Source: a virus. From it: a stretch of DNA of 29,993 nt. Location of the stretch: positions 1 through 29,993 of the IMG/VR virus record IMGVR_UViG_3300009285_008862. The stretch is one strand, 5' to 3'. This document shows, piece after piece, positions 1 through 29,993 of this stretch. Within the stretch, counting starts at the first letter, position 1. Each line of letters starts with the position of its first letter. A model generated the notes under the pieces. That model saw only the letters and a list, made by a program, of their open reading frames with translations, did no database searches and was not told where the DNA came from. The position numbers were made by a program, and so were the translations under genes.

Positions 1-599
1 AACAGTGTACGGGCGGAGGTCGCGTTTGTCGTGTTTGAGACAAGAACATTATCGTCTGCTCCCGCCGTTATCGCACCGGAGGAGAGAGTGCCGGGGCCAA
101 GATCAAGGTTTACATTCCAAACAGGAATTGTCCCATTAGACTGAAGAACGGTTTGGTTTGCTCCTACGGTGAGTCCTGTAATGGTATTTGCCGTTCCCGC
201 GTACAAAAGACCACCCTGAGTGTACGTGTCGGCAAACGTTGAGGTTGTCCATGCCGGGGCAGTCCCAGAAGAACGCAGAATTTTGCCCGCCGTACCGATT
301 GTGAGTTTTGATAAAACCGTTCCGGAGGCGTAGTAGGGTAAGTCCCCCGCAGCCCACGAGGAGAGTCCTGTGCCGCCGTAAGCGGTTGTCAGAGGATTGG
401 TAAGGGTAAGGGTTGCGAAAGAACCAATCCCACCAACAAGTAACCCGCCGGTGAAATGTCCTCCCCCCGTGACGGTGAAGGTGGAATCAAGCGTTGACCC
501 CACTTGGAGAGAAGAATCGGCTCGAATAGTCTTGTAGCGAATTTGCCCAAAGGAAAGGCTCGCGCAGAATAGGAGAAATATGACACTCAGTGTTTTCAT
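1..599 (-). CDS. Tail fibre-like protein with N-terminal signal peptide (3' part cut by window edge)
   Basis: The reading frame is open from the ATG at 599-597 to the window edge (about 199 codons seen), so the C-terminus is missing. The N-terminus MKTLSVIFLLFCASLSFGQ is a typical short Sec signal peptide with a likely cut before Q. The body is low in charge and rich in G, T and S. It carries the pattern common in phage fibre and structural proteins: TTAYGGTGLSSWAAGDLPYY, then LTIGTAGKILRSSGTAPAW, then a second round (QGGLLYAGTANTITGLTVGA, TVLQSNGTIPVW). I infer a trimeric beta-rich fibre stalk near the receptor-binding end. The start overlaps the stop of the giant protein by 4 bases (ATGA), so it is probably translationally coupled and late expressed. 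A signal peptide on a fibre is odd. A host-derived secreted protein is the alternative. Confidence 0.72.
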   Translation of the reverse strand, partial: MKTLSVIFLLFCASLSFGQIRYKTIRADSSLQVGSTLDSTFTVTGGGHFTGGLLVGGIGSFATLTLTNPLTTAYGGTGLSSWAAGDLPYYASGTVLSKLTIGTAGKILRSSGTAPAWTTSTFADTYTQGGLLYAGTANTITGLTVGANQTVLQSNGTIPVWNVNLDLGPGTLSSGAITAGADDNVLVSNTTNATSARTL

Positions 600-10702: not shown

Positions 10703-12457
10703 TCAGTTCCTTTGTATAAAAATCACGCTTCCATTTCTTACCGCCGTCACGGTGATGTCGAGAGGACTGCCTTGGAGGGCTTCGTCGGCTGTGAATCTGA
10801 AAACATAGTTCCCAGTCTTCCCTCCGAGCCTCACTGTCGCGGTCAGCAGTCCAAATTCATCTGATGTACTCACGGTGTCGATGAATGTCTGTTCCCATGC
10901 ACCCGAAGGGACTGAGAAAACTGACCATACTCCATGATGCCCTGATTTCCTGATGTCTGCGCTATCGGTAATCGCGGTCAGGGTAATGCGCGAGAGAATT
11001 GTCTGTGTCACCCCGTTGCCGGAGAGGACACTGAGTGTGTCACCTGCGCCACCCGCCTCATTCATCGTTGAACCCGCCTCATATCCTTTCGCCGATTGAA
11101 ATTCCGCGAGTGTCGTATAGGTTGTTTCCGCAGGCCATTTACCGACATTGAATTTTTGCCCGGTTCCGAAAAAGGCATTGTCGATCGAGGTCGTCGTCCC
11201 TGACTCCTGAAAATCATCAAACCTCGTATTTGCCGCGCCCGTGCATGTCACCGTATTATTATGGAATGAAACCGTTCCCCCACCGGAAGAATTAAGAGCC
11301 GTTTGACCGCTTGCTATCGCTGTGACTGTATTGCTGTAAGCCTCGTTTGCTCCGACAAATGATGTGATTTGAATAGCCGAACCCCCCGCGATAGTCGTGG
11401 TCACAGTGTTATTATGAGCGACCCAGCCCTTCCCATTGAGCAAAATCCCAAACTGCGTCCCGTTGACCGTGCAATATCGAATCGTGTCATTGACGTTATG
11501 GTATGTATCAAGCCCGGCCTGCGTTACGTTTGTAAATTGGCAGTACTCAATCACCATCGAGGTGTCTTCTTGCACTCCAACCCCGGCCTGCTCTGAGCCG
11601 CCAAAGTTAATCCCTAAAATCGTGCTCACAACATTGGAAATAGTATCACGCCGAATAGCGTTGCCGGTACCATTCAGAAAATAAATGGATGTGTAACCCG
11701 CCGAATCAATCGTGCAGGAATCAACGATGCAGTTCGTATAGTTGCCCGTAAAGAAAATCGAAATCCCTGTTGTATTTTGTATCGTAACGTTGCGGACAAT
11801 CATATTGTTGACATTCCCCCCGCTTAAACCTTTGATCGCCGTCCCGATATTGCGAAATTCGATGTCCCTGATTGTGACGTAAGACCCTTTGATGAAATTC
11901 GCTTCAAGGAAAACATGAACTACTGGAGAAGCGCCGTCCGAGGTCTTCACCCATGTTGTGTCATTGCCCCAGCCGAAACTTGATGCTGTCATCCCATCCA
12001 AGAACTTGTCAAGGCTATCGGCGTTGTTCAGGTAGAAGTGAAGCTCACCCTGGTTGGCGTTTGTCATCGCAACAGCATTTTCATAACCGGAGGCAGTCGT
12101 CACCGAGCCTGAAAAGGTCTGCCAGATACTGTCGCGGCCCGGCGTTGCCGTCCATACCGCTCCAGTCAAGTCACCATAGATAATCGGCTTCTCACCCGTC
12201 CCGTAAGCACCGAAGACAATGCGGTCCGCCTCAGTTGCGGTCGTTATAGTCTTCGAAAGTTCGCCGTAGAAGCTGTCCCCCCTGTTGAACAGAATAGAAT
12301 CCCCCGCGACGAAATTCGATCCCGTAACTTTATTCGGTGTTTTCCATGAGGTTCCTGTTGAGGTTCCGTTTGCCGCATCGCTTCCCGCCGAAGAGACATA
12401 GTACGTCGTCTGCGCGTGAAGCAAGAAGGGGAATATCAGGGCAAGAATGAGTTTCAT
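10703..12457 (-). CDS. Secreted-type right-handed beta-helix protein (tailspike-like)
   Basis: This 584-residue protein begins with the signal peptide MKLILALIFPFLLHA before QTTYY. The mature start (YYVSSAGSDAANGTSTGTSW, then FVAGDSILFNRGDSFYGEL) is the usual opening of secreted bacterial right-handed parallel beta-helix proteins. From about residue 190 to 410 there are repeated Asn/Thr/Val/Ile turns such as NMIVRNVTIQNTTGISIFF and NCIVDSCTIDSAGYTSIYF. The last ~110 residues look like an Ig-like domain. Phage tailspikes and polysaccharide lyases share this fold, so surface glycan binding or cleavage is plausible, but I see no identifiable catalytic site. It sits between signal-peptide genes and the nozzle gene, with its ATG touching the preceding TAA. 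Capture from a host secreted protein is a real alternative origin. Confidence 0.72.
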   Translation of the reverse strand: MKLILALIFPFLLHAQTTYYVSSAGSDAANGTSTGTSWKTPNKVTGSNFVAGDSILFNRGDSFYGELSKTITTATEADRIVFGAYGTGEKPIIYGDLTGAVWTATPGRDSIWQTFSGSVTTASGYENAVAMTNANQGELHFYLNNADSLDKFLDGMTASSFGWGNDTTWVKTSDGASPVVHVFLEANFIKGSYVTIRDIEFRNIGTAIKGLSGGNVNNMIVRNVTIQNTTGISIFFTGNYTNCIVDSCTIDSAGYTSIYFLNGTGNAIRRDTISNVVSTILGINFGGSEQAGVGVQEDTSMVIEYCQFTNVTQAGLDTYHNVNDTIRYCTVNGTQFGILLNGKGWVAHNNTVTTTIAGGSAIQITSFVGANEAYSNTVTAIASGQTALNSSGGGTVSFHNNTVTCTGAANTRFDDFQESGTTTSIDNAFFGTGQKFNVGKWPAETTYTTLAEFQSAKGYEAGSTMNEAGGAGDTLSVLSGNGVTQTILSRITLTAITDSADIRKSGHHGVWSVFSVPSGAWEQTFIDTVSTSDEFGLLTATVRLGGKTGNYVFRFTADEALQGSPLDITVTAVRNGSVIFIQRN

Positions 12458-13153
12458 TTAATTTCCCTTGATCGGCACGACTGTTTCCGTTGCAACATTA
12501 TCGCCACTGAAAGTGAAAGCAAAGGCATTTGTGCCTTCGTCATCCCTGTAACCCGTAGCGATAAGGTTGATCTCGGAGAGTTTCGTTGTTGGCGCATCAG
12601 CCGTTGTCGTGACCGCCGCCCATTTCCTCACAATGGCCAGCCCATAATCATTCGCCGCAAGCGTTGCTGTCGCAGTGATAGTTGAGCCGAAGCCTTGACT
12701 CCCCGTTCCCACGGTTCCGGTTGGCGCTGCCTGGTTCACCCCGCTGAAACTTGCCGCGAAAAGAGAAACCGCAACACTCGACGCATTGTACATGTAAAAC
12801 TTATGTGAGCCTGAAGTTGGATTGACAAGTCGGAAAATGTAGATGTCACCTGTGTGGTCAACCAACGTCATCTTGACCGCCGAGCCAACCGCATCCCCAT
12901 AGTACACAGAGTCCATGAGAGCGCCCGCATTGGACATGACAATGGAAATTGTCAAGAGACCATTCGAAAGGCTTGAAGTTGTGAAGCTCACAGATGAATC
13001 CGGTAGGGTTGAGGGTGTTTCATCCACCGTCGCTGAGTCAACAAGGGCTACCTGCACAGCCCCTGATGCCCTTCTCGATACCGGGCTACTATTCTGCGCC
13101 TGAACTGAGGTTACTATCAGGCACATTATTAGAATTTTCTTAAGATGAGCCAT
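12458..13153 (-). CDS. Signal-peptide protein with Ig-like beta-sandwich domain
   Basis: This is a 231-residue protein with N-terminus MAHLKKILIMCLIVTSVQA and a predicted cut before QNSS. The body has the recurrent secreted-domain pattern in which a small-residue strand (LLTISIVMSNAGALMDSVYY) is followed by GDAVGSAVKM, a strand with LVNPTSGSHKFYMY and then FAASFSGVNQAAPTGT. I have seen this layout in bacterial surface proteins and some phage structural proteins. I infer a decoration or adhesin-like component. Its start overlaps the previous gene's end by 14 bases, and its TAA directly abuts the next ATG, so the genes are one unit. Specific function is unknown. Confidence 0.6.
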   Translation of the reverse strand: MAHLKKILIMCLIVTSVQAQNSSPVSRRASGAVQVALVDSATVDETPSTLPDSSVSFTTSSLSNGLLTISIVMSNAGALMDSVYYGDAVGSAVKMTLVDHTGDIYIFRLVNPTSGSHKFYMYNASSVAVSLFAASFSGVNQAAPTGTVGTGSQGFGSTITATATLAANDYGLAIVRKWAAVTTTADAPTTKLSEINLIATGYRDDEGTNAFAFTFSGDNVATETVVPIKGN

Positions 13154-13772
13154 AGTGATACCTGATAACGACGATGAATTTATTCGAGGCTGTTGTGACC
13201 GCGGTGAAGGTGAGCCAGATGAAGTTATTCACCGGGACTGTTGCATTGTTTAAGGTCGATTGCCACGCGCCGATATATTCGTCCGTCGTTGCCGCGGGCG
13301 ATGTAATGATTGCCGTTGCCGAGGCATCCGTCCACAAACTATCGTTGTAGTAGTAGGCTGCGGTCAGATTGACCGTTGTCGGGCCCCCTACGGTATGGAT
13401 GGAGTCAATCGTAATCGCACTTGGAAGCGGTCCTGCAATCCTTACCTGATGCCCTGCAAGTTGAAGAGTCGAATCAAGTTCCAATTCGATCTGCTCAGTC
13501 ACAGACCCCAGGCTATCTGTTGCACCCCAAAATGCTTTCTTCCCAAGAAGGCCATTTGTCTTGATTTCCCTCGCATCAAGGGAGTCTCCAATCTCAGTTC
13601 TGAGCACATCTGCCGTATCGTGGATCGTTGCCGTTGAGGTCATCTCAGCGCGCAGGACATTGGCCGTATCGGAGATCTGCTGGGCTGTCGCACTATTGGC
13701 TGAGGAGGTTGGCCACTGCGCATAGATAATCCCGGGAGAGAGAAGAACAAGCAAGAATAGGAGTTTTTTCAT
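13140..13772 (-). CDS. Signal-peptide protein with short coiled-coil repeats, virion module
   Basis: This is a 210-residue protein with N-terminus MKKLLFLLVLLSPGIIYA and a predicted cut before QWPT. Residues ~33-75 hold two repeats of the type DTANVLRAEM / DTADVLRTEI followed by GDSLDAREI, which should form an oligomeric coiled coil. The rest is beta-rich (ITIDSIHTVGGPTTVNLTAAY, then IWLTFTAVTTASNKFIVVI). A coiled-coil stalk plus beta head resembles a small trimeric fibre, which is an inference. The start overlaps the stop of the 181-residue gene by 4 bases, and the 3' end overlaps the next gene by 14. Confidence 0.58.
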   Translation of the reverse strand: MKKLLFLLVLLSPGIIYAQWPTSSANSATAQQISDTANVLRAEMTSTATIHDTADVLRTEIGDSLDAREIKTNGLLGKKAFWGATDSLGSVTEQIELELDSTLQLAGHQVRIAGPLPSAITIDSIHTVGGPTTVNLTAAYYYNDSLWTDASATAIITSPAATTDEYIGAWQSTLNNATVPVNNFIWLTFTAVTTASNKFIVVIRYHYGSS

Positions 13773-14314
13773 CGTCGGGCCTCTTCGATTTCAAGAACGA
13801 TCCTGAACCTCCCGGATACCTTCGGTTGGTAAGCCCCAGTTGCAACAAGTCTTCCCCATAACGCTTGCCAGACACCCAAACGCGAATTAGACGAAAAGGG
13901 CATCGGATGATCCACAATGTTCTGGTACGCGATTGTTGAGTTTGAACCGTTCCCGGTACTTGCCAAGGTGAAGTCTATTGTCCCAACAACAAGTGAGTCC
14001 AGAGTCATTGAATTCACAAAGGCCGCGTTATCCGCAACCTTCCCCGTGCCGATGGAATCCGACAACAAGATTAACCGGAATGTGGCATTTGTCGTATTGG
14101 CTGTATCCGCGGAAAGCCGAGCAGAGATAATCCTTCCCGATAAATACCTTCCTGCGGGGACAAGTAACCTCACAAGCGAGTCTGCTCCCGAGACGACATC
14201 TCCGGCCGCGTATGCCGTGGCATTGGCAGGCCGTGTGATCTCAGCGGCAAAGCGCGCAATCTGTGCATTGGCGCAGAAGACCGCAAGCACCATGAAAAGA
14301 ATGAGTTTTTTCAT
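13769..14314 (-). CDS. Signal-peptide virion protein with RPANATAYAAGDVV motif
   Basis: This is a 181-residue protein. N-terminus MKKLILFMVLAVFCANA precedes QIARF, a classic Sec signal peptide. The mature start contains ITRPANATAYAAGDVVSG, a motif recurrent in phage structural proteins of tailed phages, followed by beta-rich sequence ending in RFRIVLEIEE. That phage motif makes it unlikely that the signal peptide simply reflects a host gene: a virion domain appears to be fused behind an export signal. A strong ribosome site (AGGAG) lies 4 bases before the ATG, which overlaps the adaptor stop (ATGA). I infer a head or tail decoration protein. Confidence 0.62.
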   Translation of the reverse strand: MKKLILFMVLAVFCANAQIARFAAEITRPANATAYAAGDVVSGADSLVRLLVPAGRYLSGRIISARLSADTANTTNATFRLILLSDSIGTGKVADNAAFVNSMTLDSLVVGTIDFTLASTGNGSNSTIAYQNIVDHPMPFSSNSRLGVWQALWGRLVATGAYQPKVSGRFRIVLEIEEARR

Positions 14315-18087: not shown

Positions 18088-18567
18088 TTAATGACCCCGC
18101 TTGTGAGCCACCAAGTAGAGATTGACTATGGTGTCTTCTTCATTTGGGGTTGAAACATCTGATCCAGTCAGCGACAAACGCGCGGTTTTGACTCCGTTTG
18201 TAGCGATAACGCCTACATAGGTCAGAACCTCGAGTTTTGCTTGTGTCGTATCGTTCACCGTTCCCAGTGTTCCCGAGTAGTTTGAACCATTATCAAACGA
18301 GCCAACCAGGATGGTCTTAAACTTCGGCACACCGACAACGCTTGTCGAACGAACCCAGCAATAGATGCTGTCGTACGGTGCGACGGAAAACTTAACGCTC
18401 GTCACCGTTGCGGCTGAATCGGATGTGAACGGGCTCCATGCTGTGACTTGCAGGATGTCAACGGTCTGACTCAAATTGTCACCGTAATTACTTACGGCAA
18501 CCGTCTGAGCATTCACCGTCAACACCAGCGTCATCAGAAGGGCCAAAACAAACATGATGCGTTTCAT
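18088..18567 (-). CDS. Signal-peptide protein beside the capsid gene (possible decoration protein)
   Basis: This is a 159-residue protein. The N-terminus (residues 1-20) has K/R at positions 2-3, then a long Leu/Met/Val core, ending VNA before QTVAVS: a good Sec signal peptide. The mature part is beta-rich (VTSVKFSVAPYDSIYCWVRS, FKTILVGSFDNGSNYSG, KTARLSLTGSDVS). The ribosome site AAAGGA lies about 10 bases before the ATG, 21 bases past the capsid stop. Position would suit a head decoration or cement protein. The leader is hard to reconcile with cytoplasmic head assembly, so a phage-encoded exported protein is the alternative. Confidence 0.6.
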   Translation of the reverse strand: MKRIMFVLALLMTLVLTVNAQTVAVSNYGDNLSQTVDILQVTAWSPFTSDSAATVTSVKFSVAPYDSIYCWVRSTSVVGVPKFKTILVGSFDNGSNYSGTLGTVNDTTQAKLEVLTYVGVIATNGVKTARLSLTGSDVSTPNEEDTIVNLYLVAHKRGH

Positions 18568-18588: not shown

Positions 18589-19776
18589 TTATGCAGCGTA
18601 GAGGATGCCCTGTTTTTCTTCGTTCGGAATCTGGATGCCAACGTCCATGAGAATCTTGGTCGTTGACCCGTCCGTTCCAGGTGTCTCAACGTTTTCCTCG
18701 ACCCGGAATCTTCGCGAACCCTTCTTGTCGTTTGCCATGAAGCGCAAAGCGACATCATCGGGGTCAATGGAGAATCCGTAGTTCGTGTACTTCCCATCAA
18801 GCACCGGATCCCATACGACATCGACAACTCCCGTATCGGGATAAAGGCGTGTCATCTGGACTCCGAACTCGGTGGTAACGTTGTCTTTGAGCTGGACCTT
18901 TGCAGCAACCATCGCATTGATGTCGGATAACTGCTGAGAACCGACATAATGAATTCGGCGTTTCGATCCTCTGGCAAAGACTTTCAGCCAGTGAGCATTC
19001 CACTGGGCGAGCGTCATTCCGCCTGCCGTATAGGTGGAGAGATTGGTCGTAATCCGGCCCAAGGCTCCGTTACCATACGTCCAGAGATAGGAGGAAACAG
19101 TACGCGTTGCCGGTGTTGCGGTGGAGAGCAGGAAGAATCGCTCGACTTTGAGCTTCATCTCCTTGATCTTCTTTTCCACCTGTTCGTCGTGGGTTTCCCC
19201 ATCCGTCCAGGCTTCGCCCGCTTCATCGCGGCCGGTGGTGGCAACGGCATCCGTGAAGATGGTGAGGTAATTGTTTTTCTCAATCGCCTCAGTGGACATT
19301 GCCGTCGGTGTTCCGGCGTACTCGTTGTTCAGATTGCCGAGGATCTTGATGTTTGTTCCGTTTGCGGCGGCAAGCAAGTTCGTCGAAGCATCCAGAGAGC
19401 TGATTGCAACCGACGTGCTGGAAGGCGTGGCGGTTACATAGGCCATCTGGTCACTGTCTTCAATGAGAATAATATCATTCGCCTTGAAGTAGGTGTAGTT
19501 CGTGATGATGAGCGTGCCTGTCGCGGCACTGGGAGCGGCAAAAGCAGCTCCAAGCGCGGCCTGATGCGGGAAATACTCATCTTCAAACCATGAGAATTTT
19601 CCGGTCTTGTTGATAACCTTCTTCTGCTTGACCCCGGCAGAGAAGAACAAGAACTGAAGGAACGGCGTTTGATACGGCTCCAAAAGAAATAGAGCGCGTT
19701 CTATGTCCGGCTTCAGTTGCGCGGCTGGGTACGATTGGCTTGACCGTACGCCAGAGATGACGCCTGTTATTGCCAT
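18589..19776 (-). CDS. Major capsid protein, SU10-like (DUF5309 type)
   Basis: This is a 395-residue protein. After the N-terminal arm comes a typical SU10-like start, ALFLLEPYQTPFLQFLFF, then GKFSWFEDEYFPHQAALGAA. A central region follows with YFKANDIILIEDSDQMAYV and VKKKI-like helices around EQVEKKIKEMKLKVERFFLL. The C-terminal part has IHYVGSQQLSDINAM, TRLYPDTGVVDVVWDPVLDG and a TTKILMDVGIQIPNEE ending. The order and motifs match HK97-fold capsid proteins of the SU10 type. It lies directly after the scaffold gene, as expected. No prohead protease gene is apparent next to it, so scaffold removal may not need cleavage by a recognised enzyme. Confidence 0.82.
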   Translation of the reverse strand: MAITGVISGVRSSQSYPAAQLKPDIERALFLLEPYQTPFLQFLFFSAGVKQKKVINKTGKFSWFEDEYFPHQAALGAAFAAPSAATGTLIITNYTYFKANDIILIEDSDQMAYVTATPSSTSVAISSLDASTNLLAAANGTNIKILGNLNNEYAGTPTAMSTEAIEKNNYLTIFTDAVATTGRDEAGEAWTDGETHDEQVEKKIKEMKLKVERFFLLSTATPATRTVSSYLWTYGNGALGRITTNLSTYTAGGMTLAQWNAHWLKVFARGSKRRIHYVGSQQLSDINAMVAAKVQLKDNVTTEFGVQMTRLYPDTGVVDVVWDPVLDGKYTNYGFSIDPDDVALRFMANDKKGSRRFRVEENVETPGTDGSTTKILMDVGIQIPNEEKQGILYAA

Positions 19777-20775: not shown

Positions 20776-21060
20776 TTAAACTGCTGTGAGTTCTTTCATT
20801 GTCTCTTGTGCTCTCCTGGCGGCTTCCTTCGACTGTCTCAATCTCTCGCGCTCCTGAAACTTCTCCCATCCGCTCCTTTGGCCCGGTAAAGGCTTAACCG
20901 GCCTGCATGTGCCAAAGAACGAATGCCGAATGCCTGTCCGGTTCTGAGTCTTGACAAACTTCTGCATGGCCTTCGGTTCAGGCATCTTCACCGTGAATTT
21001 CTCCACCTTCGGCGCTTTCTTCGGGAAGAGTTTGCGGAAGAACTGTGAAAATCTCGTCAC
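20776..21060 (-). CDS. Small basic phage protein between portal and scaffold
   Basis: This is a 94-residue, strongly basic protein (FRKLFPKKAPKVEKF; then a C-terminal helix ERERLRQSKEAARRAQETMK). The start overlaps the portal stop by 4 bases. It has no signal peptide or clear motif. Possible roles are head assembly or nucleic-acid binding, but nothing in the sequence decides between them. A 35-base gap to the scaffold start contains that gene's ribosome site. Confidence 0.52.
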   Translation of the reverse strand: MTRFSQFFRKLFPKKAPKVEKFTVKMPEPKAMQKFVKTQNRTGIRHSFFGTCRPVKPLPGQRSGWEKFQERERLRQSKEAARRAQETMKELTAV

Positions 21061-22997
21061 TGCGCCGGTGCTCCTTTCATCCCATCCTGCAAGACTTTGG
21101 CCTTTTCGATGTTCAGTTTCTCCCGCTCCATATCCATTACCTGCTTCACTTGCTGTTGCTGTTGCTGAGCCTGTGCCTGATACGCTTCCCTGATCTTATT
21201 CTTCAGGGATGAATCCATTTTGATGAATTGAAGCACGACTTCAGACGGCAAGGGGGCTCCGGTGATCTTCTGGTAAGCAAGCAACTGATTGAGCTTTTGG
21301 TCTGCATCGATCTCCGTGAGCTCACCCTCGGAAATCACCAATTCCAGCCTTGCATCCTTCAGGTAAGAATCGGGATTGTCCTTCTGGTTGATATAGGCAA
21401 ATCCCGTCCCCGGCCTATTCTCTGACTGCTCATAGACCTTTTTCCGGGTCAAGAGCGCCTTCATCTGGTCATCCAACGAATCCCCGGCAACCTTCACCGT
21501 CCGTTCGGCGGTCTGATATATGCCGATCCAGTCAAGGACCACCTGCCCAACATGGCCCTTCCACCTCATCAGATTGTCGATGAAAAGCTCCGCCACCAGT
21601 TGACCCTGAGACTGCTTCAAAGCAATGGCCTTGCCGGATTCATTCGATTGGTCCTTCAATCCTGAGAACGACCTGCCGCCGGCCAAATCCTCCACAAAGT
21701 TCTGCATGATCGCCGCGAGCTGAAAATACTGCTGCTTTGCTCCTACGGATTCAATCGGAATGACAGCCCTTTCCGGCCCCCGTTTGAACACCGTTCCGCC
21801 CGACTTCGTGATCTTCCTCTGCGCTGATTCGGGGGTTTCATTTTGGGCCAGAGCCTCGACGTTGATCTCGTACGCGTTCTTTACATCCGTTCCGAGTGAG
21901 TAATCAATCTGACTGATAAGGCGGTCAAGGAACACTTGGGGATCCTTGAGCAAGTCCGTCATCGTCCACCAGTCATCCAAGAGGTGAAAGGCTCGGTACA
22001 CGATCAAGGGACATTGGTCAGCGTCAAGTTCAGTCTCTTCGTAGGCCAAAATGCCAACGTAGGTGAAGACATACTTATCCAGCTTGTCCTCAACCTTGCG
22101 AATGATTTCCGATTCACCCGGCCTCTGGCCGATGGAGAGATAGGGCACTTTCATCTCGAGAATCTTCTCTTCAGCCTCTTTCCGTGTTCGGTATTTCCCC
22201 ACAGCCCGGGAGGCCATCTTCCCGTTCAAATTCAAATAGTCATCGAACAGGGCGCAGAAGTACGTCCTTTTCACCCTCTGATAATGCGTGACTTCGGTAA
22301 TCAAGTCGTAATCAGTGTTACCTGATTTTGATACATTGACGAAGTAATTGTAGATCAGGCGGTCATTCGTAGAAAACGCATCCCCTACGGAAATCCTGTC
22401 CACAATCGCCCCGTACTCGTCCCTCATATCCTTCCGGTATCGCGGCCGTCTTTTGGCAATAAACAAGGCATCTCTCAGGAGATAGTCCCTTGCGTTCGCA
22501 TCCCAGATCACGAGCTTGTAATCAAGCGGCCTGCACATGACAACGGTATTGTAATCCTCATCATGGTCCAGATACACCTCCACTGCACCGTAATCGACTC
22601 CTACGCCTTGAGCGAAGGTTTCAGACTCCACGTATTTGAAGGAAGCCCGGCGTTCAAAGTCCTTCATTTCGATTGTGGCGAGTTCCGCCTTCACATCATC
22701 AGCCGGATCCTGAGCCGCATCCACTCTGAAGCCAGTCCTGGTATTCCTTTGCAGAGCGCAAATGGTATTGATCTTGTTCGCAATCAAGGCAAAGGAATAG
22801 GCTTGCCGGGTCTTCTCGATGTCCGCCTTCTGCTTCTTGCTCCAATGCTGATACTTGATATACCGCTCGTTCTCATCCCCTCTTTCCCATGAGGGGGAAA
22901 AGGTTGGGAGAATGTCGGTGTGGAGTTGCACCAAGTCCGAGTAGGAAATCGGTGTGCCGGTTATGAATTCAGCGGTCTTTGTAGTTTTCTTAGGCAT
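21057..22997 (-). CDS. Portal protein, P22-like
   Basis: This is a 646-residue protein, near the usual length of P22-type portals. The N-terminal part has the standard wording ERYIKYQHWSKKQKADIEKT, then INTICALQRNTRTGFRVDAA. CRPLDYKLVIWDANARDYLL and KRRPRYRKDM follow, as in the P22 family. The later LLDDWWTMTDLLKDPQVFLD and GSSG-free FVEDLAGGRSFSGLKDQSNE match the crown-proximal portion. The C-terminus is Gln-rich (QAQAQQQQQQVKQ) and helical, suggesting a barrel extension. It forms the ring through which DNA enters the head. The gene starts 8 bases inside the end of the small Cys/His gene and follows terL, the usual order. Confidence 0.85.
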   Translation of the reverse strand: MPKKTTKTAEFITGTPISYSDLVQLHTDILPTFSPSWERGDENERYIKYQHWSKKQKADIEKTRQAYSFALIANKINTICALQRNTRTGFRVDAAQDPADDVKAELATIEMKDFERRASFKYVESETFAQGVGVDYGAVEVYLDHDEDYNTVVMCRPLDYKLVIWDANARDYLLRDALFIAKRRPRYRKDMRDEYGAIVDRISVGDAFSTNDRLIYNYFVNVSKSGNTDYDLITEVTHYQRVKRTYFCALFDDYLNLNGKMASRAVGKYRTRKEAEEKILEMKVPYLSIGQRPGESEIIRKVEDKLDKYVFTYVGILAYEETELDADQCPLIVYRAFHLLDDWWTMTDLLKDPQVFLDRLISQIDYSLGTDVKNAYEINVEALAQNETPESAQRKITKSGGTVFKRGPERAVIPIESVGAKQQYFQLAAIMQNFVEDLAGGRSFSGLKDQSNESGKAIALKQSQGQLVAELFIDNLMRWKGHVGQVVLDWIGIYQTAERTVKVAGDSLDDQMKALLTRKKVYEQSENRPGTGFAYINQKDNPDSYLKDARLELVISEGELTEIDADQKLNQLLAYQKITGAPLPSEVVLQFIKMDSSLKNKIREAYQAQAQQQQQQVKQVMDMEREKLNIEKAKVLQDGMKGAPAQ

Positions 22998-23187
22998 TGG
23001 CGAGTAAGATCAACCTTCCCAGTGGCATGGCTCTATGAGATGCGCCCGGATGATGAAACGTGACGCTTTGCAAGTGCTTCTGACAATACTTCACCCCATC
23101 CAAGTCCCATACTGCGCGTTCATCGCAGCGGTGGAAATGCTTCTCTCCATTCTGCTTCTCGATCCATTGGCATTGATGCTTGTCCAT
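22990..23187 (-). CDS. Small Cys/His protein between terL and portal
   Basis: This is a 65-residue protein. Cys and His are spaced as in a small zinc-binding fold (C6 in HQCQWIE, H-x-C in KHFHRCDE, then YCQKH), followed by a His-rich segment TFHHPGASH. The ATG shares its A with the terL TGA, and the gene overlaps the portal start by 8 bases, so it is firmly embedded in the packaging operon. A zinc-knuckle accessory to packaging is an inference. Function is unknown. Confidence 0.55.
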   Translation of the reverse strand: MDKHQCQWIEKQNGEKHFHRCDERAVWDLDGVKYCQKHLQSVTFHHPGASHRAMPLGRLILLANA

Positions 23188-24692
23188 CAGAACCTCGCCC
23201 GGATGTCTTCAGCCTCTTCGGATTCAATAAGGTCGCGGGCACGCGGTGGCAGTGCAGGCGGACCCTTCTTGAGAGGCTTTCGTATTGCCATTGTGCAGTA
23301 TTTGGCTGCATCGTAGGGATCTTCAATGGTCTGACCTCGGATGAAATCAAGCCCTTCAACACTCTCCTTGTCCGATTGGAAAACAGGCATTGTCACACGC
23401 AAATGCTGACAGTTCCTTGTCACAAAGAAATGCGGACGCTTCTCGTATTCACCCTGTTTGTTCTTCCGCCAGTCCAGGAGTTCCCTCATCACCTCGTTTG
23501 TCACTGCCCGGTATCCCTTTTTGTCCGTTGAGGCTTTTGAAACCTTTATCATTTGCGGAGCGTTTTCGCCCATCTTCAGCTTGAATACGTCCCTGAAAAT
23601 CTGAGCCGGGGTCTTATCGGTCCCGTAATAGTTCTTCAGGTCGATGTCCATGTTGGTGTCGTAGTACATCCTCAGTTTCTTCAAGCCAGCATTTATCAGC
23701 ACATCGGCTATTTCATTGGCTCGCTCTGCCGGGCTCATGGCCTCAGTGTAGCATTCGAGGAAATTGACAATCGTGCCTTCGTGATCCATGAACTGAACCT
23801 CGAGCACCGTTCTCTCGCCGTAATCCAATCCGGCCACGACTTCAGCACCCTCCGGCGGGCTCATGGGGTCAATGATATGCAGATCACGCCTCCACATGGA
23901 GAAAAACTGCCCTTCAAACACATCGAAGTCCCCCAGAAGCTGGGCCTTGCGCTGAGATTCAGGCTTTGCATCCAAGTTCCTGCCGTAATCGCTTCTGGTG
24001 ATGAAATACTGAAAACGCCTGTCGCTATCCCACAAGTAGTATTCAGCCACCGTAAGATGATCCTGAATGAGTGCCTTCCTTACCCATTCCACATTGTCCC
24101 ACCCGTAGGCACGGATAAAGGCGTATTCCTCCGGTCGTTCGTAGGACTCATACTGCTTGTCAAGGAAAATTCGCTTGTGATACTGGTGGCCTGCATCCCC
24201 AGGATTGAAGGTCAATAACATTTTCGGGGTAATATCAAGGTTGGTTGTGCAGCGGTTGATGGTTTCGAGGAACTCAATCTGTTCCTGCGTGAATTGCTCG
24301 GATTGATCGACAATCACATCGGCAGCCTCTTTACCAATGAATCTGAAAATGTCATCGTAATTGTCACTGGAGATAAAACGGATATAAGAACCATTCGGAA
24401 ATTCGACAATCTTTTCCTGCTTCTTGAAATACTGCTCAAGAATCGGGTATTCTCGCATCATGGGTCGAATGTGGTTATCTCTCAAATCGTCCAATGTCTT
24501 GCGAATAAGATAACCTGGAGTGTTTGCATATTTCAACCGGCGAAGAATCATTACAGCCCTTGCACCATGGCTCTTTGCCCCGCCTCTGGAGCCCCCGTAG
24601 CCGAAGATCCTCTCCGGCCCTTGGTCATAACGCTCAAATAGTTCCCGTTGCTTTGGCTGAAGGGCTATGTCAATCGGGATTCGGTTGCTCAT
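23187..24692 (-). CDS. terL: Terminase large subunit (TerL)
   Basis: This is a 501-residue DNA-packaging motor and nuclease. The Walker A motif is G33-GSRGGAK-SH. The coupling motif is LLTFNPGD (about residues 159-166). The Walker B strand reads ADVIVD129-Q130, with Gln where terminases normally have the catalytic Glu. The codon is caa, one base from gaa. The RNase H-like nuclease part shows its acidic residues at D290 (AGLDYGE), D345 (YYDTN) and D458/D461 (EDPYDAAK). The gene overlaps the small subunit gene by 4 bases and abuts the small Cys/His gene. The protein is full length and unbroken, so it is presumably functional with E132 or another residue compensating, or the Gln is a sequence error. 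Confidence 0.9.
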   Translation of the reverse strand: MSNRIPIDIALQPKQRELFERYDQGPERIFGYGGSRGGAKSHGARAVMILRRLKYANTPGYLIRKTLDDLRDNHIRPMMREYPILEQYFKKQEKIVEFPNGSYIRFISSDNYDDIFRFIGKEAADVIVDQSEQFTQEQIEFLETINRCTTNLDITPKMLLTFNPGDAGHQYHKRIFLDKQYESYERPEEYAFIRAYGWDNVEWVRKALIQDHLTVAEYYLWDSDRRFQYFITRSDYGRNLDAKPESQRKAQLLGDFDVFEGQFFSMWRRDLHIIDPMSPPEGAEVVAGLDYGERTVLEVQFMDHEGTIVNFLECYTEAMSPAERANEIADVLINAGLKKLRMYYDTNMDIDLKNYYGTDKTPAQIFRDVFKLKMGENAPQMIKVSKASTDKKGYRAVTNEVMRELLDWRKNKQGEYEKRPHFFVTRNCQHLRVTMPVFQSDKESVEGLDFIRGQTIEDPYDAAKYCTMAIRKPLKKGPPALPPRARDLIESEEAEDIRARF

Positions 24693-25830: not shown

Positions 25831-26163
25831 TTAACTGTCTTGTTTCTCCCTAAATTCCTTCCACTCCGCTTTGAACTTCTGCCACTCCGAGCTTGCACCC
25901 CAGCCTACATCCTGCTCCCCGGGTATGGCGTACTTCTTTTCGAAGATATAGGCGATAATCAAGGTGACCACAGCGAGCAAATACCACCACCTCCAGCCCA
26001 GAGCGACGACGAGAAGGACGGTGTTGAAGATGGTGACGTAACCCGCTAATCTCATGGCGCGGTATTTGAACTGACCGAGATAGCGGAGAAGACTGTCCCT
26101 CGTTGGATTGCCTTCCAGACCTGAGTGATGAATAAGGTTGTGCATGAGGGGGTCTTCGTTCAT
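25831..26163 (-). CDS. Two-helix membrane protein of unknown function
   Basis: This is a 110-residue protein. A soluble N-terminal part of about 38 residues is followed by two hydrophobic segments (about 40-56 GYVTIFNTVLLVVALGW and 59-75 WWYLLAVVTLIIAYIFE), with a charged C-terminal tail (SEWQKFKAEWKEFREKQ). It is coupled to the radical SAM gene by an ATGA overlap. It could be a holin-like or membrane-anchor protein, but it lies in the accessory module rather than beside an endolysin, and none is visible here. I do not assign a function. Confidence 0.55.
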   Translation of the reverse strand: MNEDPLMHNLIHHSGLEGNPTRDSLLRYLGQFKYRAMRLAGYVTIFNTVLLVVALGWRWWYLLAVVTLIIAYIFEKKYAIPGEQDVGWGASSEWQKFKAEWKEFREKQDS

Positions 26164-27140
26164 TTTTGGTACTTCCCCTTATTGGCAGCCTCAACGGGTT
26201 TTTCCTTCACCACCGGGTCGGCAAATATCAATGAGTAGTGTCCGACGCCCTTGGACTTACACGCCTTGCAGATCGGATTACTCATCACCTTTTTCCGAAG
26301 GTCTTTTAAGGGGGTTGTCAGGAAGTTCCCGATTGTGTATTCACGACGAAAAAGAAGCTGACACTGCTGCATATTCCCGCGGGTGTCAAGGGTAATCTCT
26401 CTTGATTGCATGTTGCAGTAATCATCTTCCCTGGGCTTTCGTTTTTGTCGGGCGATATTCTCCTCTGGCGTTTCAGGAAGCCAAGAGATGGTTTCCCGGT
26501 CTTCATCGGTATATGACCCGTAAATCATATGGTCATACATCATATGGGTCGCGGGGAATGCTTCAAATTCCAGTCCATACTTCTGGGCGAGCCTCTTCGC
26601 CGGCTCGTAATCCTCCCCGTTGTTCTTGTATATATGGAAGAACATAACATGCTTCGTCTCGGGATAGCGCGGATATTTCCTGTAGACTTCATCAAGCTTC
26701 TGAAGGAATCTCTCATGGTCTGAATTCTTTTGATACATCGCCATGTTTCGCCCTGAGTAACTCACCCGAAATTCCGCGGGGCGGGCGGCAAAGACTTTAC
26801 CAAAATCGCAGAGAGAGTACTGCATGATGGAGGAGGTAGCACACCGAAGGCCTCTCTTGTTGCACTCTTCGATGAAGAGATGGAGGTCTTTGTGCATCAA
26901 TGGGTCAGACCAGCGATAAAGCTGAACCTTTTTTACCCTTGTTTCCGATTGAGCTTTATCGAGGATCTGCCGGAACGTTTCTATCGACATCCTGTTGCCG
27001 TCACGCCGCGGGTCAACCCCTACGGCGCAAGTCGGACAAGCATACGGGCAGGAATCGACGAGTTCGACAAGTATTGTCAGACCCTTGAGCTTTACACCAG
27101 CCCAGCTACGCAATGCCTCATATTTTGCGTAAAAGTTCAT
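26160..27140 (-). CDS. Radical SAM protein with SPASM-like C-terminus
   Basis: This is a 326-residue protein. The radical SAM cluster motif CxxxCxxC is C31-PYA-C35-PT-C38, in VELVDSCPYACPTC. YRWSDPLMHKDL (residues 75-86) stands where the GGEP-type motif occurs. The C-terminal Cys set C242, C260, C291, C294 (with MQQCQLLFRREYTIGNFL, then NPICKACKSKG) resembles a SPASM/twitch auxiliary iron-sulfur site. It is therefore likely to bind one or two 4Fe-4S clusters and carry out a radical reaction on an unknown substrate. It overlaps the membrane protein gene by 4 bases and follows the methyltransferase gene. In phages such enzymes are candidates for nucleobase or peptide modification, which is speculative here. 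Confidence 0.8.
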   Translation of the reverse strand: MNFYAKYEALRSWAGVKLKGLTILVELVDSCPYACPTCAVGVDPRRDGNRMSIETFRQILDKAQSETRVKKVQLYRWSDPLMHKDLHLFIEECNKRGLRCATSSIMQYSLCDFGKVFAARPAEFRVSYSGRNMAMYQKNSDHERFLQKLDEVYRKYPRYPETKHVMFFHIYKNNGEDYEPAKRLAQKYGLEFEAFPATHMMYDHMIYGSYTDEDRETISWLPETPEENIARQKRKPREDDYCNMQSREITLDTRGNMQQCQLLFRREYTIGNFLTTPLKDLRKKVMSNPICKACKSKGVGHYSLIFADPVVKEKPVEAANKGKYQK

Positions 27141-28300: not shown

Positions 28301-29164
28301 TCACTTGTTCTCCTTTGGGGAGGCGAGGGGGAATTCGTGAATGATTTCGCCGTCAAGTTCTCTGCCGCCCCATGTGCCGTCTATCTTTTTGCTTCCACCG
28401 TGTTGCTTGTGGAAGAATGGGATGTCTGCTTTTTGGCATTGCTCGCGAATAGAACGCACCCATTCAAGGTTTGTTGGGCGCGGATTTTTGAAATCGGACT
28501 CTCCGCCCGTTACGATCCAATTCACTTTCGGCGCGCCTCCATATTCGATTCCCGATTTCGTGTACACGGTTCCATTCATCACATCGGTTTCCGTCGCGGG
28601 GTTCAAGGCAATACGTCCCCATTCATCCTTTTGTTCAACTGGCAGGACTATGCGCTCGAAATCTATACCACCCAGAAGCGGCTCTGCGCTTACCCAACGA
28701 ATCGCTGCGGGGGTCATCATCAAAAACGGTATTCGTTCATTCGCCTCTTTCTGTCTCTCTGCACTCACGCCAAGCCATACATTCGCGTATCCTTTACCCC
28801 AATCCTTCGGCAAATGTTCCTCGATTCTTTCGGGGCGTTTTGTCAGAATCAAATAGGTAAATTGCGGGGTTGCCTTGATAACCGCCCACGCCTCATCCCT
28901 CCATGTGTCCGCCTCCTCAATGAACCAATCGGAATAGGAACAGGTAAAGATTCTCCCGCCCGATCGTACCTTCCCGTTTTTCGCCCACGTCAAAGGCGCA
29001 CGGAATGTTGCCGCAGATGACCGCCACGGCTTGTTGGGATCCTTCCCATAACGGGTTAGGTCGCGGAACATGTAACACTTGGCACAGCCAGGACTCACCT
29101 TATGGCAACCTTGCCACGGATTCCAAGTTGCATCCGCCCATTCGATTCCTGTTCTCTCAGCCAT
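28301..29164 (-). CDS. Gp37/Gp68-type protein (DUF5131), Fe-S cluster candidate
   Basis: I chose the ATG at 29164 (287 residues, MAERTGIEWADATWNP). AAAGGAG lies six bases upstream, and the extra 14 codons to 29206 sit inside the preceding gene. TGIEWADATWNPWQGC, then KVSPGCAKCYMFRDLTR, is the signature of the phage Gp37/Gp68 (DUF5131) family. The Cys set is C20, C27 and C30, related to radical SAM-type enzymes. Other family landmarks are IFTCSYSDWF, YLILTKRPERI, VWLGVSAERQ, RWVSAEPLLG and NWIVTGGESDFKNPRP. The reaction is not established as far as I know. It occurs with a second radical SAM gene and a methyltransferase in the same operon. Confidence 0.85.
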   Translation of the reverse strand: MAERTGIEWADATWNPWQGCHKVSPGCAKCYMFRDLTRYGKDPNKPWRSSAATFRAPLTWAKNGKVRSGGRIFTCSYSDWFIEEADTWRDEAWAVIKATPQFTYLILTKRPERIEEHLPKDWGKGYANVWLGVSAERQKEANERIPFLMMTPAAIRWVSAEPLLGGIDFERIVLPVEQKDEWGRIALNPATETDVMNGTVYTKSGIEYGGAPKVNWIVTGGESDFKNPRPTNLEWVRSIREQCQKADIPFFHKQHGGSKKIDGTWGGRELDGEIIHEFPLASPKENK

Positions 29165-29453
29165 TGGTTTCTCCTTTTGCGAGGGCAAGGATTTCCCTGT
29201 ATGCAATTCTCTCTGCCGTATGCGGAGTGTTCTTCAGGTTCAACTCTGCTATCTCCGCTATCTTCCGTAGGCGGGATTCCAATGAATGGTATGAATCGCG
29301 AAGCCCTTCACCATCACATGCCCCGCAGGGTGCATACTCGTGACTATGAAACATTCCCTCCATTGAACGGTCGCCCGCATCAATAGCCATATCGCGCGTA
29401 ACGCGGTGTTCTCCAATTACTACCTTGCCCTCTCCCTGACAATCCGGGCATAG
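29157..29453 (-). CDS. DnaJ-like zinc-motif phage protein, 5' end lost at junction
   Basis: The real N-terminus is not visible. The open frame runs on to 29507 only through nuoN DNA in another frame, with no ribosome site or natural start near the motif. From the junction the protein reads CPDCQGEGKVVIGEHR, then CGACDGEGLRDSYHS, two CxxCxGEG elements like the zinc repeats of DnaJ. A helical C-terminus follows (ESRLRKIAEIAELNLKN). Small proteins of this kind are common in phage early regions, with unknown partners. Its 3' end overlaps the DUF5131 start by 8 bases, which shows that it belongs to the phage operon. Confidence 0.6.
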   Translation of the reverse strand, partial: LCPDCQGEGKVVIGEHRVTRDMAIDAGDRSMEGMFHSHEYAPCGACDGEGLRDSYHSLESRLRKIAEIAELNLKNTPHTAERIAYREILALAKGETNG

Positions 29454-29993
29454 TAATATAACGAGACCACGCCGTTCAGGACGCCGAGCACGGCCAGGAT
29501 ATACCACTTGGCGCTGATGACCGCGGCAAAGAGATAGAACTTACCGATGAATCCGGCCAGCGGCGGAATGCCGGTGAGCGACAACAGGAAAAACGTCAGG
29601 CTTGCTGCGAGAATCGGATTGCGGACGGAAAGGCCGTTGTACGCATCGATTTGGTTTGTCCCCACGTTTCGCTCGATCGCAAGAACGGTGAAAAAAGCGC
29701 CCAGATTTGTGAAAAGGTACGTGACCACGTAAACGAGCGTTGCTTCGAGCCCGAGTTTGGAGGCAACGGCAATTCCCACCAACATGTAACCGGCCTGTGC
29801 GATGCTGGAATATCCAATCAAACGTTTGACATCGGCTTGAACGATCGCAATTAAATTTCCAACCGTCATCGTTAAAATTGCAAGAACCGTTAACAAAAAA
29901 GTCCACTGGTGTGTCAGGTAAGGGAACGTGACCAGCAGGACTCTGGCCAAAACGGAAAACCCGAGCGCTTTGGGCGCGACGGTCAAGAACGCC
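29420..29993 (-). pseudogene. nuoN: Partial nuoN: NADH-quinone oxidoreductase subunit N (5' cut by window, 3' replaced by phage DNA)
   Basis: About 190 residues of an antiporter-like membrane subunit of respiratory complex I are present. IVQADVKRLIGYSSIAQAGY is the family hallmark (with the key Lys after D-V). Membrane helices follow, with ATLVYVVTYLFTNLGAFF and PILAASLTFFLLSLTGIPP, then AGFIGKFYLFAAVI and the last seen helix GVLNGVVSLYYYARIV. The frame stays open to the window edge at the 5' side (AFLTVAPKALGF). It ends at 29420 after only RERAR beyond the junction, whereas NuoN proteins usually continue by about two more helices. The last codons are therefore phage DNA read in the wrong frame. 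It looks like the host end of an insertion or an assembly chimera. Confidence 0.85.
29439..29453. other. Phage-to-nuoN junction with sequence suiting both frames
   Basis: On the minus strand CTATGCCCGGATTGT reads Y-A-R-I-V in the nuoN frame (continuing YYYARIV) and L-C-P-D-C in the phage frame (starting CPDCQGEG). Both are family-typical through this stretch, so the breakpoint cannot be placed more precisely than about 15-20 bases. Such shared sequence fits either site-specific or illegitimate recombination, or a false join during assembly. Confidence 0.6.

What the first reader, a model, noticed from the sequence alone, without database searches (positions are those of the whole stretch)
29420..29993. 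Phage genome joined to host nuoN through a shared ~15-base stretch
NuoN is cut after YYYARIV and continues as a phage zinc-motif gene whose own start is missing. The stretch CTATGCCCGGATTGT is coding and family-typical in both frames. If real, a phage sits in a core respiratory gene, which would disable complex I unless the attachment site restores the reading frame. No integrase is in the window. An assembly chimera at microhomology is more likely, and either answer decides whether the host can be read from this contig.
Basis: partly seen in the sequence, partly recalled or inferred. Interest (0 to 1): 0.6.

Follow-up and report, generated by a model that had tools for sequence, protein, structure and literature searches.

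The report
Three-piece assembly chimera ending in nuoN
The bacterial gene at the end of this phage contig is very probably an assembly mistake, stitched from two unrelated bacteria and the phage at short look-alike stretches, so it says nothing reliable about which bacterium the phage infects.

Summary
The last ~550 bases encode a 3'-truncated NuoN (PF00361, E 9e-42). NuoN likeness stops around YYYARIV. From there a start-less phage zinc-motif gene runs on in another frame, through the shared stretch 29439-29453.

New here: the nuoN flank is itself a mosaic. About 29543-29992 is Omnitrophota-type (89% aa identity to L003 over aa 1-150). About 29435-29543 is only 36-44% identical to all 6 members of that family (aa 161-186), but 64-80% to 9 Calditrichota genomes. 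Profile scores flip from 242/125 to 23/73 bits; 6 of 6 family members scored leave-one-out show no flip. The switch lies in the NuoN motif GIPPLAGFIGKFYLF. The two joins are ~50-115 bases apart, less than a typical short read.

Phage signal peptides look Bacteroidota-like: 6 of 6 carry A/G-Q, against 2 of 13 in Omnitrophota samples. No integrase, tRNA or known RNA was seen.

Best reading: a three-piece chimera (phage + short Calditrichota-like nuoN piece + Omnitrophota nuoN), made in assembly or library preparation. Reads were not available. A real phage/nuoN junction at the inner join is not excluded, but would rest on at most ~115 bases.

The parts
29543..29992 (-). Omnitrophota-type nuoN fragment (outer piece), open at the contig end
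   Evidence: PF00361; 89% aa id to L003 over aa 1-150, 66-74% to 5 other members of that family; profile 241.8 vs 125.1 bits
29505..29550 (-). Outer join (nuoN to nuoN), in or just after the motif GIPPLAGFIGKFYLF; best point 29543
   Evidence: change point of DNA identity to L003, 85% before and 52% after, log-likelihood gain 25, range within 2 units
29448..29543 (-). Calditrichota-like nuoN piece (middle piece), ~50-115 bases
   Evidence: 36-44% to 6 of 6 Omnitrophota family members, 64-80% to 9 of 9 Calditrichota loci compared (aa 161-186); profile 23.0 vs 72.8 bits
29439..29453 (-). Shared stretch at the inner join (nuoN to phage), codes YARIV and LCPDC in two frames
29157..29447 (-). Phage zinc-motif gene (CxxCxGxG ... 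RDMAIDAGD ... CxxCxGxG), start codon missing
   Evidence: relatives L108 60%, L109 56%
28301..29164 (-). DUF5131 phage protein, its ATG overlapping the zinc-motif gene by 8 bases; undisputed phage sequence next to the join
   Evidence: PF07505 1.1e-67, phrog_2045 1.1e-75; start position read

Best explanation
The right end of the contig is an artefact of assembly (or of template switching in library preparation). Three molecules are spliced: a phage with a P22-like portal up to about 29440; a piece of ~50-115 bases of nuoN from a Calditrichota-like bacterium; and the nuoN of an Omnitrophota bacterium. The inner splice sits on a chance ~14-21 base identity between nuoN and the phage zinc-motif gene. 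The outer splice sits on one of the most conserved motifs of NuoN, where nuoN genes of different phyla share the most DNA. Shown: the switch of family affinity inside nuoN, its position, the missing phage start, and the shared stretch. Inferred: that no real DNA molecule carries these joins.
For: Identity to the Omnitrophota family falls from 66-89% to 36-44% at the switch, while identity to Calditrichota rises from 44-48% to 64-80%. The same stretch is conserved within the family (15 of 15 pairs 64-88%), so it is not a fast-evolving region. Profile scores flip 241.8/125.1 to 23.0/72.8, and 6 of 6 leave-one-out family members do not flip. In 384 Omnitrophota genomes the match with the best E-value to the 48-aa middle piece is 60% identical (3e-16), against 85% (3e-22) in a Calditrichota genome. 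The change point lies at 29505-29550 in or just after a universal motif. The zinc-motif gene lacks the start its relatives have. Phage signal peptides: 6 of 6 with A/G-Q, against 2 of 13 in Omnitrophota samples. No tRNA, no Rfam family at gathering score, and no integrase family for the 22 phage ORFs scanned against Pfam and/or PHROGs (the other, mostly short frames were not scanned).
Against: No reads or coverage were available, so neither join is tested directly. The middle piece is short (26 to 48 aa), and the Calditrichota loci compared were themselves picked by likeness to it. Few virus-bacterium chimeras were found in one simulation (PMC3901335, passages), and all chimeras were usually under 5% of large virome contigs in another (PMC5610896, passages). 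No parent sequence holding the shared stretch was found (the 14-mer is in 0 of the 176 loci other than the window's own L001; 0 viral contigs for a 20-base probe across it), so the overlap length is inferred.
Confidence: 0.87

Rival explanations
1. Only the outer join is an artefact. The inner join is a real phage/host junction: the phage, or a piece of it, sits in the nuoN of a Calditrichota-like or Bacteroidota-like host, by an integrase or by illegitimate recombination at microhomology.
For: The middle nuoN piece is Calditrichota-like and the phage signal peptides are of a type found in that part of the tree (6 of 6; Calditrichota sample 5 of 13, Ignavibacteriae-phylum sample 3 of 9), so both could come from related hosts.
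Against: Only ~50-115 bases of such host sequence exist, no longer than a read; no integrase was seen; the insertion would cut a core complex I subunit; the phage gene at the join has lost its start, which an ordinary attachment site at a genome end would not do; TerL has 0 of 40 matches in Calditrichota genomes at E 1e-20.
Confidence: 0.08
2. A genuine prophage in an Omnitrophota bacterium whose nuoN had earlier taken up a Calditrichota-like segment by recombination.
For: One unbroken nuoN reading frame crosses the outer join.
Against: No recombinant of this kind among 6 family members, and none in 384 Omnitrophota genomes comes near the middle piece (best E 3e-16, 60%). Splices at a conserved codon stretch of two nuoN genes also keep frame. 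The phage signal peptides do not fit, and TerL has 1 of 384 matches in Omnitrophota, weak (31%).
Confidence: 0.03
3. The phage itself carries a nuoN fragment as cargo.
For: The fragment lies on the same strand as the phage genes.
Against: A two-phylum mosaic with no start or end that cuts a phage gene; the nuoN piece had no tblastn hit at E 1e-3 in any of the 59 viral-contig loci L083-L141 compared, which are distant relatives.
Confidence: 0.02

Closest known systems
Interspecies chimeric contigs of metagenome assembly
   Same: Abrupt change of source at conserved or identical short stretches; described in benchmarks (PMC5610896 and PMC3901335, passages read).
   Different: Here two splices lie within ~115 bases and one of the partners is a phage; virus-bacterium chimeras are described as few (PMC3901335).
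Prophage integrated in a protein-coding gene
   Same: A phage genome abuts a truncated host gene.
   Different: No integrase seen, no restoring 3' end seen, the phage gene is cut too, and the host flank belongs to two phyla.
NuoN (NADH-quinone oxidoreductase subunit N)
   Same: PF00361 and NuoN models match over about 186 residues.
   Different: Truncated at both ends; affinity switches between phyla inside the piece.

Membership tests
Interspecies assembly chimera | Pieces of one contig belong to different organisms | tested here: met
   nuoN outer piece Omnitrophota, middle piece Calditrichota-like
Interspecies assembly chimera | Switch at a stretch that the sources can share | tested here: inconclusive
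   outer switch in or just after a universal motif, inner at a stretch fitting both families; the parent DNA itself was not found
Interspecies assembly chimera | No reads, or few, span the join; coverage step | not testable with these tools
   no reads held
Prophage integrated in a host gene | Integrase or other recombinase | tested here: inconclusive
   none among 22 phage ORFs scanned; the record may be a fragment, so it could lie elsewhere
Prophage integrated in a host gene | Host flank from one genome | tested here: not met
   only one flank, itself a mosaic
Prophage integrated in a host gene | Phage genes intact at the attachment site | tested here: not met
   zinc-motif gene lacks the start that relatives have

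The most novel reading that the evidence does not exclude
The inner join is real: a phage of a Bacteroidota- or Calditrichota-like host recombined with, or integrated into, the 3' part of its host's nuoN through a ~15-base identity, silencing complex I in the lysogen; only the outward extension into Omnitrophota nuoN is an assembly error.
Probability: 0.06. Interest if true: 0.5.

Novelty: not a real feature. Interest (0 to 1): 0.12.

Why it matters
It removes a false phage-host link: this record would otherwise tie a phage to Omnitrophota through a core respiratory gene. It also shows a cheap test for such flanks without reads: check whether the flank itself changes its closest family within a read length of the join.

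Tried and rejected
Searches for the phage's own kin across the join: portal and radical SAM queries in viral contigs gave no confirmed relative. TerL gave 24 loci (best 55%), but by tblastn they share almost no other window protein, so no relative shows what normally lies upstream of the zinc-motif gene. A 20-base probe over the inner join found 0 viral contigs. TerL against phage records gave 212 records, all under 60% identity. The TerL search in host phyla was too sparse to name a host: 1 of 384 Omnitrophota, 3 of 395 genomes of the phylum of the Ignavibacteriae genome G003, 0 of 40 Calditrichota at E 1e-20.

Shared k-mers between the nuoN part and the rest of the contig are at chance level; this says nothing about the parents, which are not in hand. 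A count of YYYAR in nuoN loci failed (the pattern captured the wrong end of the match) and is not used. Some 20-aa identities exceed 1 because gap columns were counted; only the pattern there is used, not those values. A first regular expression for signal peptides misplaced the cleavage site; the rules replace it.

Considered and rejected: a fast-evolving NuoN C-terminus as the cause of the switch (within-family pairs stay 64-88%); a chimeric L003 as the cause (5 other family members agree with L003 there).

Rows left out: alignments with gaps were skipped; L142 (same place as L003) and L163/L164 (same as L014/L007) were left out as duplicates; 3 of 9 genomes of the Omnitrophota family had no match at E 1e-50; the Calditrichota set is the 9 of 40 genomes that match the middle piece at E 1e-17, so its level is biased upwards, while its low likeness to the outer piece was not selected.

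Full report
What is there. The window is a whole linear virus record of 29993 bases. The phage genes run on the minus strand: Terminase_3 large terminase (23187-24692), P22-like portal (21057-22997) and major head protein (18589-19776). Next to the right end lie DUF5131 (28301-29206) and an overlapping 96-codon zinc-motif frame (29157-29447) with no Pfam or NCBIfam match and no significant PHROG. The last ~550 bases are NuoN (PF00361, 9.1e-42; NuoN models), open at the contig end.

The inner join. NuoN reads ...SLYYYARIVRERAR and two stops; the phage gene reads ...LLCPDCQGEGKVVIGEHRVTRDMAIDAGD... in another frame. Relatives of the phage gene, L108 (60%) and L109 (56%), start a few codons before the first CxxC; here that place is nuoN. 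The stretch 29439-29453 fits both families.

The outer join, not seen before. Against the closest genome, a Candidatus Omnitrophota contig (L003, 81% over the whole piece), the DNA is about 85% identical up to about 29543 and 52% beyond (change-point gain 25 log units, range 29505-29550). The 6 family members agree with one another in the second part (15 of 15 pairs 64-88%), but the window is at 36-44% to them there. In that same part it is 64-80% identical to 9 Calditrichota loci, to which the outer part is only 44-48%. Profile scores say the same: 241.8 (Omnitrophota) against 125.1 (Calditrichota) for aa 1-140, and 23.0 against 72.8 for aa 152-187, whereas each of 6 family members left out in turn scores for its own family in both parts. 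Across 384 Omnitrophota genomes, 79 match the 48-aa middle piece at E 1e-10 or better, the best (3e-16) at 60%; a Calditrichota genome matches at 85% (3e-22). In 395 genomes of the phylum of the Ignavibacteriae genome G003, 2 match at E 1e-18 or better, at 69-71%. A Binatia genome matches at 77%, so the middle source is 'Calditrichota-like', not proven Calditrichota.

What it means. Two changes of source within ~50-115 bases, the outer one in or just after the motif GIPPLAGFIGKFYLF that recurs in NuoN of many phyla, are what splices through shared short stretches produce. A single short graph node or a chimeric read would give both at once (inference). The 'host' flank therefore cannot name a host.

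Host fit. Six phage proteins have a signal-peptide-like N-terminus, and 6 of 6 have A/G-Q after the hydrophobic core. The same rule gave 2 of 13 in Omnitrophota stretches (9 + 4 from two samples), 5 of 13 in a Calditrichota genome and 3 of 9 in a genome of the Ignavibacteriae phylum (small samples, home-made rule). High Q after the cleavage site is typical of Bacteroidetes (average 71%) and was 77% in Ignavibacterium album (PMC5837995, passages). This points away from Omnitrophota and towards a Bacteroidota-like host, without naming one.

What is not settled. No reads are held. The inner join could in principle be real in a Bacteroidota- or Calditrichota-like host, since the middle piece and the phage could share such a host; I give this 6-8%. 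It lacks an integrase (no such family for the 22 phage ORFs scanned; the record may be a fragment), cuts a phage gene, and rests on at most ~115 bases. A listing search for nuoN as a prophage site (nuoN, prophage, attachment site, integrated; at least 3 of 4 terms) showed no occurrence of nuoN in its 10 listed papers; 734 papers held three terms, so this is not evidence of absence.

Literature on chimeras. Passages of PMC5610896 give chimeric contigs as usually under 2.5% of assembled sets and under 5% of contigs of 10 kb or more. Passages of PMC3901335 suggest that chimeras arise from conserved functions or sequences, and say that few joined viruses with bacteria.

Noticed in passing
window 29157-29447; L108, L109, L110, L112, L114-L117: A short motif (R)DMAIDAGDxxLEG recurs in otherwise unlike phage proteins: zinc-motif proteins (window, L108, L109, L113) and other contexts; in L110 it lies within the stretch that matches DUF5131. 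The window's protein has no significant family in PHROGs, Pfam or NCBIfam.
   Followed up: partly
window 26160-27140: A phage-side radical SAM protein, weakly like tungsten cofactor oxidoreductase maturase (TIGR04317, 2e-11, far below cut-off) with a weak SPASM match.
   Followed up: no
window 3-599, 10703-12457, 12458-13153, 13140-13772, 13769-14314, 18088-18567: Six phage proteins, among and around the virion genes, have signal-peptide-like N-termini with A/G-Q; so many exported-looking proteins seem unusual for such a phage (from general knowledge, not tested).
   Followed up: partly
window 28301-29206 and 29157-29447: The DUF5131 ATG (29164) overlaps the end of the zinc-motif gene by 8 bases, suggesting translational coupling.
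   Followed up: no
L118: The closest TerL (55%) contig shares only TerL and one weak protein (32%) with the window, a strongly mosaic relation.
   Followed up: no
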